Shown in pieces: positions 11,979-55,980 of a DNA stretch of 64,000 nucleotides. The stretch's first letter is position 1; every line of letters begins with the position of its first letter. The stretch lies in contig NZ_KB907245.1 of assembly GCF_000381905.1 (NCBI RefSeq), forward strand, positions 64,951 to 128,950, given 5' to 3'. Both the position numbers and the translations under genes were made by a program. Under the pieces are notes generated by a model. It did no database searches. It was given only the letters and a program-made list of their open reading frames with translations, and was not told where the DNA came from. This DNA comes from Paenibacillus fonticola DSM 21315. GTDB lineage: Bacteria; Bacillota; Bacilli; Paenibacillales; Paenibacillaceae.

Positions 11979-13490
11979 CTAATTACTGATGCCGCTAGTC
12001 TTCCCTTCTTCTTCAGCTTCCGGAGCGCGATTCCGCAGACCTAGCACAGAAACAACTCCGATCACCGCCAGTACAGCCATCACGATAAACAGGGCATGCA
12101 GACTATTCTGCAGTACGTGCCTCAGCTCGTTCCACAGCTCTGTAGGCAGCAGGTGGACTTTCTCTGGAGAAAGCAAATTGTTAATGTCATCTTGCGATAC
12201 CTGCAGACCGGAGGTTGTTCCGGAAGCTGTCTGCGCGACAATCCGCAAATTTATTAAAGTGCCGAATACGGCAACGCCGATCGTCTGGCCAATCGATTTG
12301 GTAAATGTGTTCAGTGCGGTCGAGGCCCCGCGCAAGCTGAAGCCTACGGAGGATTGGGCGATGATCGTGAACACCGTGAAGGAGAGCCCGAAGCCCACCC
12401 CGTAGATGGCGTTTGAAAGCAGCATCATATACACTGGTGTCTCCTCCGTCACAAAGCCGATTCCTGCTGCGCCAATAGCAATGAACACCATGCCGATCAG
12501 GGATGTATAGCGGGATCCTTTACTAATAATCCAGCGCGCACCATAAACGGAGCCGAATAACCAGCCTATGGACATGGGCGCAAGGATAAGGCCGGACATC
12601 GTTGCATTTTTGCCAAGTACCCCTTGAATCCATAGCGGTAAATAAGAAGTAAGACCAATCAGCAATGCGCTTGCAAGCAAGCTGGCAACGTTCGAGTATG
12701 CGATATCCCTGATGCGGAACAGCTTGAGAGGCACGAGGGGCTCCTCAGCCCGATTCTCCACGATTAGGAACAGAATTAGCGAAATGACGGCAACGGCTAA
12801 AATACCTATTAGCCATGGGGATGTCCAGGCGAATTGCTGCCCGCCCGTAGCGAGCCCGAAGAGAAGTGCTGTTACACCTATTGTAAAAGTTATCGCGCCG
12901 CTAATATCAACCTTCACATTACGTTTTTCAATTTTTTCCTGCAGATACTTTATGATGAACCACAAAGACAACAAACCAAAGGGTACATTAAAACCAAAAA
13001 TCCAGCGCCAATTGAATGTATCTACGACATAGCCGCCAAGCAGCGGTCCTACGAGGGAGGATATGCCCCACACCGAGCTCATTAAAGCCTGAACCCTGGC
13101 CCGCTCCTCGATGGAATAAATATCGCCGATGATAGTAAAGGTAACCGGAATCAGCGCTCCGGCTCCGATCCCCTGCAGCGCACGGAACACAATAAGCTGT
13201 TCCATGCTCTGCGAGAGTCCGGATAGCAGTGATCCTGCTAAAAATAATAAAGACCCGATAATAAATACGGGCTTTCTACCGTACAAGTCGCTCATTTTTC
13301 CAAAAATCGGCGTAGAAACGGCCATAGTTAGCAAATATGCAGTAAATACCCAGCTGAGTAAAGCCACTCCGCCTAAATCTCCAACAATCCGCGGACCAGC
13401 CGGGCCGATCACCGTGCCTTCAATTGCGGCAAGGAAAGTGGACAGAAGCAAGCCAGCTAGAATGTAATTGCGTTTCAAATCTGTCTTCAA
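11979..13490 (-). CDS. MFS drug exporter, DHA2 (EmrB/QacA) family, 14 helices
   Basis: A proton-driven exporter of 503 residues with 14 predicted helices. Motif A appears as GKMSDLYGRKPVF after helix 2, and motif C-like GPLLGGYVVDTFNWRWIFGFNVP spans the helix 5-6 region, as in the DHA2 subfamily. The substrate cannot be read from sequence. The start is TTG with AAAGGAAG upstream. It is monocistronic. The MarR-type regulator 1 kb away is a plausible but unproven controller. Confidence 0.92.
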   Translation of the reverse strand: MKTDLKRNYILAGLLLSTFLAAIEGTVIGPAGPRIVGDLGGVALLSWVFTAYLLTMAVSTPIFGKMSDLYGRKPVFIIGSLLFLAGSLLSGLSQSMEQLIVFRALQGIGAGALIPVTFTIIGDIYSIEERARVQALMSSVWGISSLVGPLLGGYVVDTFNWRWIFGFNVPFGLLSLWFIIKYLQEKIEKRNVKVDISGAITFTIGVTALLFGLATGGQQFAWTSPWLIGILAVAVISLILFLIVENRAEEPLVPLKLFRIRDIAYSNVASLLASALLIGLTSYLPLWIQGVLGKNATMSGLILAPMSIGWLFGSVYGARWIISKGSRYTSLIGMVFIAIGAAGIGFVTEETPVYMMLLSNAIYGVGFGLSFTVFTIIAQSSVGFSLRGASTALNTFTKSIGQTIGVAVFGTLINLRIVAQTASGTTSGLQVSQDDINNLLSPEKVHLLPTELWNELRHVLQNSLHALFIVMAVLAVIGVVSVLGLRNRAPEAEEEGKTSGISN

Positions 13491-13648: not shown

Positions 13649-15395
13649 CCTGTTTCATCGTCCAAACCGATAAATCCTCACCTATAAAGCATTCAGGCTC
13701 ATGGGTAACAATTATGACCGCAGCGCCATCCGCAACCGCGCGCCTACACAAAGCCGCAAGAGCATTAGCTCCCTTATAATCAGCTCCCGCTGTAGGTTCG
13801 TCAAGAATGTAGAGCTTTTTCGGCAGCATCATCGCTGCAGCCGCACTAAGCAGCCGCTTCTCTCCACCGCTAAGCAGGTAAGGCGAATCCTGCTCCCGCC
13901 CATCCAGCCCGATGCATTGCAGCATCTCTTGCGCCCGCCTGTCGATATGCTCTGGCACCGGCTTCCCCGGGGCCAAACGCAGCGTAAAGCGCGAGCCGTA
14001 CAGCAGTTCCTCGATTACAGTAGCGGCGACGAATTGATGCTCCGGCTGCTGGAAGACATACCCAATATCTTCTGCAAGGTCATACAGCTTCATGGTGGCG
14101 GCATCCTTTCCCCGCCACCATATTGTGCCGTGCGGAGGAGACAGCAGCCCCATCAGCAAACGTGATAACGTCGTCTTGCCAGAGCCGTTCTCACCACAGA
14201 GCAGCCGCCACTCGCCTGCTGCCAAAGTTGCATTCACATCACTCAAAATGGTGGGGCCAGTCTTGCTGTAGGCGAAGGTCAGTCCGGAAATTTGTAATAG
14301 CGGCTGGGCCGCTGATGCCTTTGCATCCTGATGAGATGCCGATGCTTTGGCATCCTGCCGGGCTGCCGGAGGACCTGCGTTTGCAGTCATTGCGGCCCCG
14401 GCAGCTCCGCTTGCCATGCAGGTGCCCTCGTGCGGTGCGGCGGGGGCACTCGCCTGCGGCAATGCGCGGGCGTCCGCTGCCGGTGCGGCGTAGGCACCCG
14501 CCTGCGGCAATGCGCAGGCGTCCGCTTGCAGTGCGGCGTAGGCACTCGCCTGCGGCAATGCGCGGGCGTTCGCTGCCGGTGCGGCGGGGCCCCCCACCTG
14601 CTGCAATGCGCAGGCGTTCGCTTGCAGCGAGGTGTCCTGCGGCTCCACCACAGCCGGGAGAACGCCCAGCTCGATCAGCCGCGCGCGCTTGGCGCCGGTG
14701 AGTTCAGCCGCGGGGCCGTCCATGGCCACCTTGCCGCCGTCCATCACGATGAGCCGCGGGGCCGCCGACGCCAGCATATCCAGCCGGCCGGACACCGTAA
14801 TAAGCGTCCGCCCCTCGCTATGCAGCTGGCGCAGCAGCGCAAGGAACCGCCGCCGGGACCTTGCGTCCAGACTGGCCACCGGCTCGTCGAACACCAGCAC
14901 CGGCGGCTCCAGCGCCAGCACTGCCGCGATTGCCGTTCGCTGCCGCTGGCCGCCTGACAGCGTATGGACGCTGTCAAACCGCCGCTCAGCGAGATCAACC
15001 GCGGCAAGAGCATCCGTTACCCGCCGCTCGATCGCGGGCACGTCAATTCGCAAGTTCTCGGGGCCGAAGGCTGCCTCGTCCTCAACCCGCCCCTGAACCA
15101 GCTGGGCATCAGGGTCCTGAAACACGATGCCGATACGCCGAACGACTTCCGCGATATCGGACTCAGCCGGATCGTACCCGTCCACAAGCACGGCTCCTTG
15201 GCGTTCACCGCCGCCAGAGCGGGGCAAGTAGCCGTTAAGGAGCTGGACCAATGTAGACTTGCCGCTTCCGCTGGAGCCTGTAATTGCAAGCCATTCACCA
15301 GATTGCACAGTGATCGATACATCCTCAACTGCCGCAGCGTCCTCCGGCTCGTACCTATACGTGACATTTTGCAGTTCAATAGCCGGTCCTTTCAT
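13632..15395 (-). CDS. ykoD: ECF transporter duplicated ATPase, YkoD-like
   Basis: Two ABC ATPase domains fused in one 587-residue chain, the energy module of an energy-coupling-factor vitamin transporter. Domain 1 (about 1-235) has GSSGSGKS at 40-47 and LSGGQRQR near 145; domain 2 (about 365-587) has GENGSGKT near 400 and LSGGEKR near 500. Fused twin ATPases next to a YkoE protein are typical of the thiamine/hydroxymethylpyrimidine transporter YkoEDC. Residues 235-365 are an unusually long Ala/Gln/Pro-rich linker made from 16-residue repeats and are far more GC-rich than the flanks. It starts 7 bp after ykoE ends. Confidence 0.9.
   Translation of the reverse strand: MKGPAIELQNVTYRYEPEDAAAVEDVSITVQSGEWLAITGSSGSGKSTLVQLLNGYLPRSGGGERQGAVLVDGYDPAESDIAEVVRRIGIVFQDPDAQLVQGRVEDEAAFGPENLRIDVPAIERRVTDALAAVDLAERRFDSVHTLSGGQRQRTAIAAVLALEPPVLVFDEPVASLDARSRRRFLALLRQLHSEGRTLITVSGRLDMLASAAPRLIVMDGGKVAMDGPAAELTGAKRARLIELGVLPAVVEPQDTSLQANACALQQVGGPAAPAANARALPQASAYAALQADACALPQAGAYAAPAADARALPQASAPAAPHEGTCMASGAAGAAMTANAGPPAARQDAKASASHQDAKASAAQPLLQISGLTFAYSKTGPTILSDVNATLAAGEWRLLCGENGSGKTTLSRLLMGLLSPPHGTIWWRGKDAATMKLYDLAEDIGYVFQQPEHQFVAATVIEELLYGSRFTLRLAPGKPVPEHIDRRAQEMLQCIGLDGREQDSPYLLSGGEKRLLSAAAAMMLPKKLYILDEPTAGADYKGANALAALCRRAVADGAAVIIVTHEPECFIGEDLSVWTMKQGRLHM
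14451..14642 (+). repeat. Four 48-bp in-frame tandem repeats in the ykoD linker
   Basis: Three nearly identical 48-bp units (starts 14451, 14499, 14547) and one diverged unit (from 14595) begin with CGCCTGCGGCAATGCGC. On the coding strand each encodes 16 residues around ALPQA and AYAA. The copies hardly differ, which suggests recent duplication. Confidence 0.9.
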
Positions 15396-15402
15396 TCAGC
15401 CA

Positions 15403-15993
15403 TCAGCTCCTGGCGCTGACGGCGAAGCGGCGAAGCAAACCGCTGCGCGCCAGGCCGTCGCCCAGCAGCTTCGTCAACAAGCCGCATAATACGACGCCGC
15501 TGATCGTGCGTACGACGAGGGCGATAAGCAAAATATCCATTCCCCACACCGTATAGCCAAACATTTGAGCCGCCACAAAAAACCAAATAGGCACCATCGC
15601 TCCACCCGCGAGAAGCAGCACGGACCATCCCCAATTCCGGTATTTGAATATAGCAAAAATAATTTCAGCGATAACCATATAGCATGCTGCAGCGGCAAAA
15701 CATGCCGGAAGGCCGTATGCCGTTCCCATAAAGGATTGGACAACCGCACCGATGCTGTATGTAATGACCGCTGTCCCCGGCTTGCGAATAATATAATAAG
15801 CAAGCAGTCCGTAAACCATATAGAGACCGGTAATTGTCGAGGTGGCAATCGGCCCCCCGACACTGTTCAGCGCCTGATTGACGGGGGACATATATACCGT
15901 CATCACAGCATTTGCGGCAGCAAGCATCGCCATCAGCACGATATCCATCGTCGTGAAAGCAGCAAATGCCTTTCTCTTTGTATTGTTTTTCAT
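15403..15993 (-). CDS. ykoE: ECF transporter substrate-binding subunit, YkoE family
   Basis: A 196-residue membrane protein with about five or six helices. It carries the YkoE-type segment YYIIRKPGTAVITYSIGAVV, and the C-terminal VVRTISGVVLCGLL region also matches. Characterised YkoE binds thiamine or its pyrimidine moiety. The ATG at 15993 has AGGAAG upstream; a TTG one codon earlier is possible. Unlike typical ykoE genes it has no TPP riboswitch. Its promoter is instead overlaid by a BirA-like operator, so the substrate here may differ (biotin or a precursor). Family assignment is firm, substrate is open. Confidence 0.85.
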   Translation of the reverse strand: MKNNTKRKAFAAFTTMDIVLMAMLAAANAVMTVYMSPVNQALNSVGGPIATSTITGLYMVYGLLAYYIIRKPGTAVITYSIGAVVQSFMGTAYGLPACFAAAACYMVIAEIIFAIFKYRNWGWSVLLLAGGAMVPIWFFVAAQMFGYTVWGMDILLIALVVRTISGVVLCGLLTKLLGDGLARSGLLRRFAVSARS

Positions 15994-16020
15994 CAATGTA
16001 ATCTTCCTCTCACTCGCATA

Positions 16021-16053
16021 TTGTTAACCACTTAGATTAATTTAGGTTAACAA
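16021..16053. promoter_or_regulatory. BirA-like operator over the ykoE promoter
   Basis: TTGTTAACC (16021-16029) and GGTTAACAA (16045-16053) form a perfect 9-bp inverted repeat with a 15-base spacer. This has the sequence and spacing class of the biotin repressor (BirA) operator of Gram-positive bacteria. It covers the -10 box of the ykoE promoter and ends 28 bases before the ykoE ATG, so binding should block transcription. Confidence 0.75.
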
Positions 16054-16067
16054 TTAAAATACGTCAA
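16039..16067 (-). promoter_or_regulatory. SigA-type promoter of ykoE-ykoD
   Basis: On the minus strand TTGACG (16062-16067) and TAAATT (16039-16044) are 17 bases apart. The -10 box lies entirely inside the spacer of the BirA-like inverted repeat. Confidence 0.6.
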
Positions 16068-16099: not shown

Positions 16100-16858
16100 T
16101 TACAAGAGCAGCAAAATTACGAGAACCATGACGCTGAAGCCGGAAATCGCATATCCGCCTGGATGAATCCGTACTTCACGAAGATACGTGCGCTCCGGGT
16201 ATGCCCCGAACCCCTTTGAATCCATCGCTCCGGCCGTTTGCTGAACGCGCCGGATCGCCCCGGCAAAGATCGCAAACATTTGGCCGCGCCACATCTGAAT
16301 CCGCTCGGCCATACCTCGCGGAGCTCGTCCAGCCCGAATTTTCCGGGCAGCTCCGGAAACTTTTGCTTCTGCCTCCAGCAGCGGCAGAAACGTCAGCGCG
16401 ATAGACACCCCAAATAAAAAGCGATAAGGCAATTTCAGCCGCTGCGCCATAATGACTACGAAGTCCTTAGCATCTGTAGATTCGATATAAATGAGTGAGG
16501 AAAGAAACAATACGACCATGCGCAGCGCAACCCCCGCTCCATGGATCAGCCCCCCCGCCGTTACAGTAAGCGGCCCAAGAGACAAATAGGACTCGCCAGC
16601 GGCGGCGGATAAAGCGGTGAGCACAAACAACGGCAATGCAAAGCCGGTAATAAACAGCGTTCGTTTGTACAGCCGCCCCCCGCTCATCCCAGCTCCCCAT
16701 CTTGCCGCAGTCATGACCAACAGCAGCATTATCGCCAGGTGAAGCGGATTATCCGATTCCATCGCCAATATCGCTAGACAGAGCAGCACAATAAGCTTGC
16801 TGAGAGGGTCTAGCCGTTCCAGCGGAAATCGTCTATCTTGCCGTGCCTGAGTTACCAT
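16100..16858 (-). CDS. ykoC: ECF transporter transmembrane (T) component, YkoC/CbiQ family
   Basis: The scaffold subunit that couples the ATPases to the substrate subunit in ECF transporters. It is 252 residues with about five helices. The coupling-helix signatures are present: AARKIRAGRAPRG near residues 170-182 and AMDSKGFGAYPERTYLRE near 208-225. The ATG follows GGGGGGAAGG and overlaps the end of the upstream acetyltransferase gene by 7 bp. It lies upstream of the BirA-like operator, so it belongs to a different primary transcript from ykoE-ykoD, unless read-through occurs. Confidence 0.88.
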   Translation of the reverse strand: MVTQARQDRRFPLERLDPLSKLIVLLCLAILAMESDNPLHLAIMLLLVMTAARWGAGMSGGRLYKRTLFITGFALPLFVLTALSAAAGESYLSLGPLTVTAGGLIHGAGVALRMVVLFLSSLIYIESTDAKDFVVIMAQRLKLPYRFLFGVSIALTFLPLLEAEAKVSGAARKIRAGRAPRGMAERIQMWRGQMFAIFAGAIRRVQQTAGAMDSKGFGAYPERTYLREVRIHPGGYAISGFSVMVLVILLLL

Positions 16859-17427
16859 GCCTTCCCCCCTGAGTAATATTCTTGTCTTAACAGCGAAAAC
16901 ATCAGCAAATCGACAAATCCGTCCTCCGTCTTCTGATACTGGCGAAGCAGCCCTTCCTCTGTGAAATCAAACGCTTGTAAAAGTCCCTTGGAAGCCTTGT
17001 TGTCAGGATGAACGAGCGCCTCAATCCGATTTAAGCCGATCGTCTGATAGCCGTAGGACAGCACGATGCGCAGCGCTTCCGACATATATCCGCAACCCCA
17101 ATATTCCTGGCCCAGATCGTACCCAATTTCCCCGCGGTAAGCCCCCGACAGCTCCCAGACATTGAAACCGCAGCTGCCGATCAATCGCCCTTCTTCTTTA
17201 AGCTCGATTCCCCAGCGGAGCGCGTCTTCACTTTCCGAAAGACCATTAAGCAAATGGATCATTTCCAGCGTATCCTCCACCGAGGCAAACGGCGGAATGT
17301 TCATATACCTGACCACTTCCGGATCGCTCCAAAATTGAAACATCCGCTCTGCGTCCGAAGACTCCATTTTCCTTAGCCGAAGTCTCTCGCTTTCGATCAC
17401 CGGTATGTATCCCCCGCATCTGTACAC
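16852..17427 (-). CDS. GNAT acetyltransferase, RimJ/RimL type
   Basis: A 191-residue acetyl-CoA-dependent N-acetyltransferase. The N-terminal ERLRLRKMESSDAERMFQFW and the acetyl-CoA-binding loop QEYWGCGYMSEAL are typical of the RimJ/RimL subgroup that acts on protein N-termini or small amines. The start is GTG with AGGAGGG upstream. Its last bases overlap ykoC, so the two genes are co-transcribed, although no functional tie to a vitamin transporter is known. The substrate cannot be assigned. Confidence 0.85.
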   Translation of the reverse strand: MYRCGGYIPVIESERLRLRKMESSDAERMFQFWSDPEVVRYMNIPPFASVEDTLEMIHLLNGLSESEDALRWGIELKEEGRLIGSCGFNVWELSGAYRGEIGYDLGQEYWGCGYMSEALRIVLSYGYQTIGLNRIEALVHPDNKASKGLLQAFDFTEEGLLRQYQKTEDGFVDLLMFSLLRQEYYSGGKAW

Positions 17428-36782: not shown

Positions 36783-36816
36783 CAAAAAAGCCATCCGAGA
36801 ATACACGAATGGCTTT
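36783..36816 (-). terminator. Riboswitch-controlled terminator before thiE
   Basis: On the minus strand AAAGCCAT (36816-36809) pairs with ATGGCTTT (36794-36787), followed by TTTGCG. It is placed between the TPP aptamer and thiE and is therefore the expression platform that stops transcription when TPP is bound. Confidence 0.85.
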
Positions 36817-36821
36817 AAATT

Positions 36822-36920
36822 CGATATGTTCTCTACGCCAGCATTACCTGGATCAGATTAACGGTCCGGAACATCAGGTTCCAATCTCAGCCGGACTTCA
36901 TCCAGCACCCGCACTCGATA
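36822..36920 (-). promoter_or_regulatory. TPP riboswitch (THI element)
   Basis: On the minus strand the conserved aptamer words are in order: GGGTGCT (36910-36904), CCGGCTGAGAT, CTGATCCAGGTAATGCTGGCG, and GTAGAGAAC (36836-36828). They match the THI box core (GGGTGC, CTGAGA, CTGATCTGGATAATGCCAGC, GTAGGGAA). The P3 region has a variable insert around CCGGACC. Confidence 0.93.
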
Positions 36921-36933
36921 TTCAGTTACTCTC

Positions 36934-55670: not shown

Positions 55671-55749
55671 CATGGCAGAATTCACCCGTTCTCGGGCCCT
55701 GTCATGCCCGAATTAAAGCCGGCCAAGCAGCATGGTCCGACCGGTCAAA

Positions 55750-55823
55750 TTCCCCCGTAGTCCGATCATTTCCGGTGATCAGGTAGAAACATGCAGGCCA
55801 ATTCCTGCACATATACGAGAAAA
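55750..55823 (-). promoter_or_regulatory. Guanine-type purine riboswitch aptamer
   Basis: On the minus strand the conserved GTTTCTACC, ACCGGAAAT and GACTACG occur in order, with P2 (TGCAGG/CCTGCA), a P3 stem TGATC/GATCG, and a P1 helix between TTTTCTCGTA (55823-55814) and TACGGGGGAA (55759-55750). The C in GACTA is the position that selects guanine or xanthine rather than adenine. It lies before xpt-pbuX, as in B. subtilis. Confidence 0.93.
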
Positions 55824-55980
55824 GTATGAAGAAAATTGTCGAATGTTAATATGCAATGATTAGTAGTATAACGCAAACAATCCACAGAAATAAAGAGGTA
55901 TTTCGTGGATTAAGCAAATATTTTGTTAATTATCCTTTTCGGCCGCAGCTGCCTTTCAACCACAGCTTTTGCCGCCTGGA

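What the first reader, a model, noticed from the sequence alone, without database searches (positions are those of the whole stretch)
15993..16067. BirA-like operator controls a YkoE-type ECF transporter
A perfect TTGTTAACC-N15-GGTTAACAA dyad lies over the -10 box of the ykoE-ykoD promoter. This is the form of biotin-repressor operators. YkoE systems are otherwise described as thiamine or pyrimidine importers under TPP riboswitches, and no such riboswitch is present here, although a clear one stands before thiE in the same window. It suggests that this transporter moves biotin or a biotin precursor, or that biotin status controls a thiamine-related importer.
Basis: partly seen in the sequence, partly recalled or inferred. 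Interest (0 to 1): 0.75.

Follow-up and report, generated by a model that had tools for sequence, protein, structure and literature searches.

The report
A thiamine-type importer remade for biotin
In many Paenibacillus bacteria a protein from a thiamine-uptake family has a different binding pocket, often sits behind the biotin-repressor switch, and mostly occurs in genomes that lack the usual biotin importer BioY, so it is very probably an overlooked biotin transporter.

Summary
The dyad is real: TTGTTAACC-N15-GGTTAACAA at 16021-16053, with the -10 box of the ykoE-ykoD promoter in its spacer. It is a BirA-type operator: in 118 family genomes 35 of 37 such dyads not at ykoE lie beside bioY, bioB or bioD, and the genome encodes BirA with a helix-turn-helix. 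The window's YkoE is not a thiamine YkoE under odd control. It belongs to a separate clade (support 100/100) in which thiamine-pocket residues Trp49, Glu77 and Gln95 are Tyr, Gln and Tyr in 28/28 and 76/76 proteins, with no TPP riboswitch in 88 loci searched. All 27 of 118 genomes lacking BioY carry it; all 90 without it have BioY; one has both. The window's genome lacks BioY and bioD but keeps bioB behind a similar operator. Best explanation: a group I ECF importer of biotin and/or dethiobiotin, repressed by BirA, that has replaced BioY. Limits: 9 of 48 further variant genomes also have BioY, 15 of 28 variant genes lack the operator directly upstream, and transport is untested.

The parts
16021..16053 (.). 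BirA-type operator, perfect dyad TTGTTAACC-N15-GGTTAACAA
   Evidence: similar site at bioB in this genome and at bioY/bioB/bioD in relatives
16039..16067 (-). promoter: -35 TTGACG 16067-16062, -10 TAAATT 16044-16039, overlapping the dyad
   Evidence: same layout in 37 of 46 relatives' sites printed
15403..15993 (-). ykoE-like S component of the variant clade, 196 aa, PF09819
13632..15395 (-). ykoD-like fused double ECF ATPase (EcfA-EcfA), 587 aa, downstream of ykoE
16100..16858 (-). EcfT/CbiQ-type T component, 252 aa, just upstream of the dyad; a homologue is detected just before ykoE in 27 of 28 variant loci
16852..17427 (-). GNAT acetyltransferase overlapping the ecfT start; probably not part of the transporter
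   Evidence: found in 10 of 28 variant loci

Best explanation
The locus encodes a group I ECF importer (S = YkoE variant, T = EcfT, A = fused EcfA-EcfA) for biotin and/or dethiobiotin. When biotin is plentiful, BirA loaded with biotinyl-AMP binds the dyad as a dimer and blocks the ykoE-ykoD promoter; when biotin is scarce, repression lifts and the importer is made. The S component comes from the thiamine-binding YkoE family, but its pocket residues have been replaced, and in Paenibacillus it stands in for BioY. Shown: operator, its recurrence at biotin genes, BirA with HTH, clade, residue replacement, absence of a TPP riboswitch, near-complementary distribution with BioY. Inferred: BirA binding here, direction of control, the substrate, and assembly with the neighbouring T and A units.
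For: Operator: 47 of 49 dyads in 118 genomes lie at bioY (16), bioB (13), bioD (6, the dyad 1.4-1.6 kb before it) or variant ykoE (12). A near-perfect operator precedes 13 of 28 variant ykoE genes and 0 of 42 canonical ones (42 of the 52 canonical matches were examined), and 44 of 76 named variant loci have it with at most 3 mismatches versus 0 of the same 42 canonical loci. BirA including its N-terminal region in 28 of 28 variant genomes. BioY absent in 27 of 28 genomes with the variant and in 0 of 90 without (Fisher p 9e-26, not corrected for relatedness; both states occur within genus groups g1 and g8). 12 of 13 genomes with neither BioY nor bioD have the operator directly before ykoE. Pocket: Trp49, Glu77 and Gln95 replaced in 28 of 28 and 76 of 76 variants; Trp49 and Gln95 kept in 42 of 42 canonical. 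One clade, support 100/100. Fold as YkoE 5EDL, TM 0.87. P. polymyxa is described as a biotin auxotroph (PMC6932822) or as growing much later without biotin (PMC10385886) (passages); P. brasilensis and P. farraposensis, which I recall as its relatives, carry the variant and an operator and had no BioY match.
Against: No transport or binding data. 15 of 28 variant genes in the 118-genome sample lack an operator directly before ykoE (one, G026, has one before ecfT) though those genomes have BirA with HTH, and 14 of those 15 have bioD. 9 of 48 further variant genomes, and G065, also have BioY. Canonical YkoE proteins themselves vary at Glu77 (Ser in 19 of 42) and Asp131 (8 of 42 not Asp), and in PMC5037267 single alanine changes at four of the five ligands weakened thiamine binding only 2- to 5-fold, so replacement alone does not prove loss of thiamine binding. 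No residue suited to biotin's carboxylate was identified. Other biotin importers (YigM type or unknown) were not looked for in this genome.
Confidence: 0.85

Rival explanations
1. The transporter moves another compound of biotin metabolism or demand (pimelate, KAPA, DAPA, a fatty acid or lipoate) and biotin status only signals the need.
For: The dyad also stands at synthesis genes (bioB, bioD), so the operator alone does not name the substrate. 14 of the 28 variant genomes have bioD, where an earlier precursor could be used.
Against: 12 of the 13 genomes lacking both BioY and bioD carry the operator directly before ykoE; without bioD, compounds earlier than dethiobiotin should be of little use (inference). 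The complement is to BioY, a biotin S component.
Confidence: 0.08
2. It still imports thiamine or HMP and has merely come under biotin control.
For: Same fold and family as thiamine-binding YkoE; some sources call close homologues HMP/thiamine permease YkoE; most single ligand-to-alanine changes in B. subtilis YkoE only weaken thiamine binding (PMC5037267, passages).
Against: All five thiamine ligands named in PMC5037267 are replaced in the window protein; a bulky Gln95Trp abolished binding there, and this position is Tyr in every variant checked. TPP riboswitch over gathering score in 0 of 88 variant loci searched (28 named; some genomes are in both sets) versus 24 of 32 canonical loci searched. 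The same genome has a canonical copy under a TPP riboswitch.
Confidence: 0.04
3. The dyad is the operator of a different regulator with a similar motif, and ykoE belongs to that regulon.
For: No gel shift has been done in this organism; the reversed-pattern control also gave 29 hits in 28 of 118 genomes.
Against: 35 of 37 non-ykoE dyads adjoin bioY, bioB or bioD. The half-site GGTTAACAA is contained in a B. subtilis bioO primer of PMC4016012, where BirA gel shifts at bioO needed biotin and ATP (passages).
Confidence: 0.03

Closest known systems
YkoEDC, group I ECF thiamine/HMP importer (B. subtilis YkoE, PDB 5EDL)
   Same: PF09819 family, same fold (TM 0.87), T component and fused ATPase genes in one locus
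   Different: 31% identity in the structural alignment; thiamine ligands replaced; no TPP riboswitch found; BirA-type operator; T gene upstream instead of downstream (B. subtilis order recalled)
BioMNY / BioY, ECF biotin importers
   Same: BirA-type operator before the gene in 21 of 30 bioY loci examined; largely complementary distribution; ECF architecture
   Different: no detectable homology to BioY (hhalign probability 1.1%; no PF02632 match in the 25 variants scanned)
BirA regulon of B. subtilis (bioWAFDBI, yuiG, yhfUTS)
   Same: half-site contained in the bioO primer of PMC4016012 (passages); BirA with N-terminal HTH; synthesis and import genes as targets
   Different: a YkoE-family transporter is not among the three B. 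subtilis sites named there

Membership tests
YkoE family of ECF S components (PF09819) | profile match and S-component fold | tested here: met
   95 bits against cut-off 25.2; 25 of 25 variants scanned match; the only PDB fold hit with E up to 0.001 is 5EDL
Thiamine/HMP YkoE subgroup | thiamine ligands Tyr46, Trp49, Glu77, Gln95, Asp131 | tested here: not met
   5 of 5 replaced in the window protein; Trp49, Glu77, Gln95 replaced in 28/28 and 76/76 variants
Thiamine/HMP YkoE subgroup | TPP riboswitch control | tested here: not met
   0 of 28 variant loci of the family sample, 0 of 60 named loci searched; canonical 24 of 32 searched
Group I ECF transporter | S, T and A components encoded together | tested here: met
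   ecfT and ATPase homologues beside ykoE in 26 of 28 variant loci; EcfT not detected in L124, adjacent ATPase not detected in L115
BioY family | PF02632 profile or detectable homology | tested here: not met
BirA-regulated biotin regulon | operator dyad shared with bona fide biotin genes | tested here: met
BirA-regulated biotin regulon | group II BirA (ligase plus N-terminal HTH) in the genome | tested here: met
   328-aa ORF; 28 of 28 variant genomes, HTH region aligned; HTH read from the sequence by recall
BirA-regulated biotin regulon | biotin-dependent BirA binding and repression | not testable with these tools
   needs gel shift and mRNA measurement
Biotin transporter | biotin binding and uptake | not testable with these tools
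   needs ligand binding and uptake assays

The most novel reading that the evidence does not exclude
A clade of the thiamine S-component family YkoE has switched substrate to biotin vitamers (biotin and, in genomes that keep bioB but lack bioD, dethiobiotin), has been taken into the BirA regulon, and has displaced BioY several times in Paenibacillus. It would be a second ECF solution to biotin uptake and a case of substrate switching inside one S-component family.
Probability: 0.82. Interest if true: 0.82.

Novelty: new variant of a known kind. Interest (0 to 1): 0.77.

Why it matters
Some sources name close homologues as HMP/thiamine permease YkoE, so genome-based vitamin models could read these genomes as having a second thiamine importer and no biotin importer. 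If right, it gives a biotin uptake route for biotin-dependent Paenibacillus without BioY, adds a second ECF S-component family for biotin, and offers pairs of paralogues, in this case in one genome, in which the residues that set thiamine versus biotin specificity can be tested.

Tried and rejected
A single-genome test with the perfect dyad was uninformative (one copy); the relaxed pattern across the family was needed. The idea of a thiamine importer under biotin control was put aside after the pocket and riboswitch results. Looking for an operator in the 15 genomes without one directly before ykoE: only G026 has a good site, before ecfT (named locus L211 is the same region); named loci L210 and L212 also have one before ecfT. 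Three-mismatch sites in L126/L127 and a shared four-mismatch site over the ykoE start in L128/L129 are unexplained. BirA with its HTH region is present in those genomes, so loss of BirA does not explain it. A plasmid search found only two distant, partial matches (33% identity). Literature: ten searches for YkoE with BirA and biotin, BirA operator in Paenibacillus, YkoE, BioY with Paenibacillus, ECF biotin alternatives, P. polymyxa biotin auxotrophy, YkoEDC, biotin uptake with S component, the half-site letters (20 of 98 listed) and BirA/ECF/regulon combinations. I recognised no paper in the lists as linking YkoE to biotin; passages of six papers were seen (PMC6593275, PMC5037267, PMC10385886, PMC10789242, PMC6932822, PMC4016012), the rest only as listings; subscription journals are missing and the RegPrecise database was not consulted. 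The one search count of operators before 30 bioY loci used a slipped strand list and is replaced (its rows L232-L240 and the Fisher tests were not affected). In one search the step for L249 and L250 gave nothing and was redone.

Full report
OBSERVATION. The dyad TTGTTAACC-N15-GGTTAACAA lies at 16021-16053 without mismatch; none occurred in 100 shuffles of the window. Read on the minus strand, -35 TTGACG, 17 nt, -10 TAAATT puts the -10 in the dyad's spacer next to the first half-site, and ykoE begins 27 nt after the dyad. The order on the minus strand is GNAT gene, ecfT, dyad, ykoE, ykoD (fused double ATPase). No Rfam family reaches its gathering score there; a TPP riboswitch stands at 36813-36922 before an ORF that I recognise as thiE.

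IS IT A BIRA OPERATOR? The genome (6.3 Mb, 99.99% complete) has one BirA of 328 aa whose N-terminus I read as a helix-turn-helix, and a second PF03099 protein that I read as a lipoate ligase. bioB is preceded by TTGTAAACT-N14-GGTTAACAA. In 118 genomes of the family, TTGTWAAC-N14-17-GTTWACAA occurs 49 times in 38 genomes. By coordinates and tblastn, 16 lie before bioY, 13 before bioB, 6 lie 1.4-1.6 kb before bioD, 12 before the variant ykoE and 2 elsewhere. Leaving ykoE out, 35 of 37 adjoin biotin genes. The control (pattern read backwards) had 29 hits in 28 of 118 genomes, which I did not locate. The half-site GGTTAACAA is contained in a B. subtilis bioO primer of PMC4016012, whose passages report BirA gel shifts at bioO, yuiG and yhfU only with biotin and ATP.

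TWO KINDS OF YKOE. The 80 PF09819 matches in the 118 genomes fall into two score classes: 52 at 105.1 bits and above, 28 at 97.2 bits and below. The low class, including the window's, is 48-100% identical to the window protein; the 42 canonical loci fetched are 33% or less. The tree puts 29 variant rows (28 plus L249 from another family) on one side of one branch with 100/100 support and a very long stem (3.71); 44 canonical rows lie on the other side. The window's genome holds both: the variant here and a canonical copy at C17 (L130) under a TPP riboswitch. A TPP riboswitch over the gathering score is found in 11 of 12 canonical loci L130-L141 and in 13 of 20 others (10 of the 42 not searched), but in 0 of 28 variant loci and 0 of 60 named variant loci (16 of 76 named loci were not searched; some named loci are the same genomes as the 28).

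POCKET. PMC5037267 (passages) names Trp49, Glu77, Gln95 (pyrimidine) and Tyr46, Asp131 (thiazole) as thiamine ligands. There Gln95Trp abolished binding, Trp49Ala gave no fluorescence response, and alanine at each of the other four positions weakened binding only 2- to 5-fold. In 28 of 28 variants Trp49 is Tyr, Glu77 is Gln and Gln95 is Tyr; Tyr46 is Thr (14) or Val (14); Asp131 is Ala (24) or Ser (4). In 42 canonical proteins Trp49 and Gln95 are kept in 42; Glu77 is Glu in 23 and Ser in 19; Asp131 is Asp in 34. The three replacements hold in 76 of 76 named loci. The predicted structure (pLDDT 83.7) has 5EDL as its only PDB match with E up to 0.001 (TM 0.87). I infer from the alignment, without coordinates, that Tyr58, Gln86, Tyr105 and perhaps Trp137 line the new pocket.

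BIOY. BioY (PF02632) is over cut-off in 91 of the 118 genomes; one further weak match (G007, 21.6 bits, below cut-off) is not counted. All 27 genomes without BioY have the variant; of 28 with the variant only G065 also has BioY; all 90 without the variant have BioY (Fisher p 9e-26, which ignores relatedness). Within the window's genus group g1, 8 have the variant only, 2 BioY only and 1 both; within g8, 4 variant only and 6 BioY only. I infer that the exchange occurred more than once; no species tree was made. So the exclusion is strong, not absolute. In G065, P. ihumii and P. woosongensis, close relatives at this protein that hold both, the operator stands at ykoE and no site is found near bioY; in the other 7 with both, bioY also has a site with at most 1 mismatch (rows L234-L240). 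Of 30 bioY loci of the family sample, 21 have the operator with at most 2 mismatches within 350 nt.

OPERATOR AT YKOE. With a matrix trained only on 16 bioY sites, 13 of 28 variant genes (genus groups g1 and g8) score 27.3-32.2 of 32.2, 15 (g6, g9, g19) score at or below -1.4, and 42 canonical loci reach at most 5.2. G026 has a site before ecfT instead. Of 76 named loci 44 have the site with at most 3 mismatches within 200 nt of ykoE (mean 0.1 per 100 shuffles; 0 of 42 canonical), and 3 more have it before ecfT. Of 13 genomes without BioY and without bioD over cut-off, 12 have the operator directly before ykoE. Of the 15 genomes without it there, 14 have bioD and all have BirA with HTH, so control there differs or uses a site I did not find.

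MECHANISM. Inferred: a BirA-biotinyl-AMP dimer occupies the dyad and blocks RNA polymerase at the overlapping -10; low biotin releases it; YkoE variant, EcfT and the double ATPase import biotin or dethiobiotin; bioB lets the cell finish dethiobiotin. The own genome has no bioD match; bioA, bioF and bioW were not searched. Whether ecfT is co-regulated here is open, because it lies upstream of the operator.

PHYSIOLOGY IN PRINT. P. polymyxa is described as a biotin auxotroph (PMC6932822) or as able to grow without biotin but much later (PMC10385886) (passages). I did not test P. polymyxa itself; P. brasilensis and P. farraposensis, which I recall as relatives, have the variant with an operator and no BioY match.

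DISTRIBUTION AND NAMES. The 76 named loci (a pattern-limited scan) are nearly all Paenibacillus, plus Fontibacillus phaseoli, Caldalkalibacillus mannanilyticus, a record labelled Neobacillus mesonae and one Paenibacillaceae MAG. In 398 genomes of the class, E up to 1e-20, 9 match: 7 in this family and G246 are variants; G305 has canonical residues. Sources call the homologues ECF transporter S component or putative HMP/thiamine permease YkoE. I recognised no paper listed in my ten searches as tying this clade to biotin.

Noticed in passing
window 14431-14627: A 48-bp (or 96-bp) tandem repeat lies in the linker between the two ATPase halves of ykoD and encodes an Ala-rich repeat; the frame stays open.
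   Followed up: partly
window 55738-55838 (-): Purine riboswitch, 77.9 bits.
   Followed up: no
window 11979-13490 (-): DHA2-type MFS efflux gene directly after ykoD; a homologue follows the transporter in 15 of 28 variant loci (loci cut at 7 kb or less); its link to biotin is unknown.
   Followed up: partly
L002 1501-1533 (G000:C10:157588): A two-mismatch match to the dyad, TTGTTAACC-N15-GGTTAACCC, of unknown role.
   Followed up: no
L128 3602-3635 and L129 3652-3685: A shared degenerate dyad, AGGTAAACC-N16-GGGTAACAT, at the ykoE start in two genomes without a standard operator; possibly an altered BirA site.
   Followed up: partly
L087 1384-2906 (G065): A bioY-ecfA cluster without a BirA-type site nearby in a genome that also carries the variant ykoE with operator.
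   Followed up: partly
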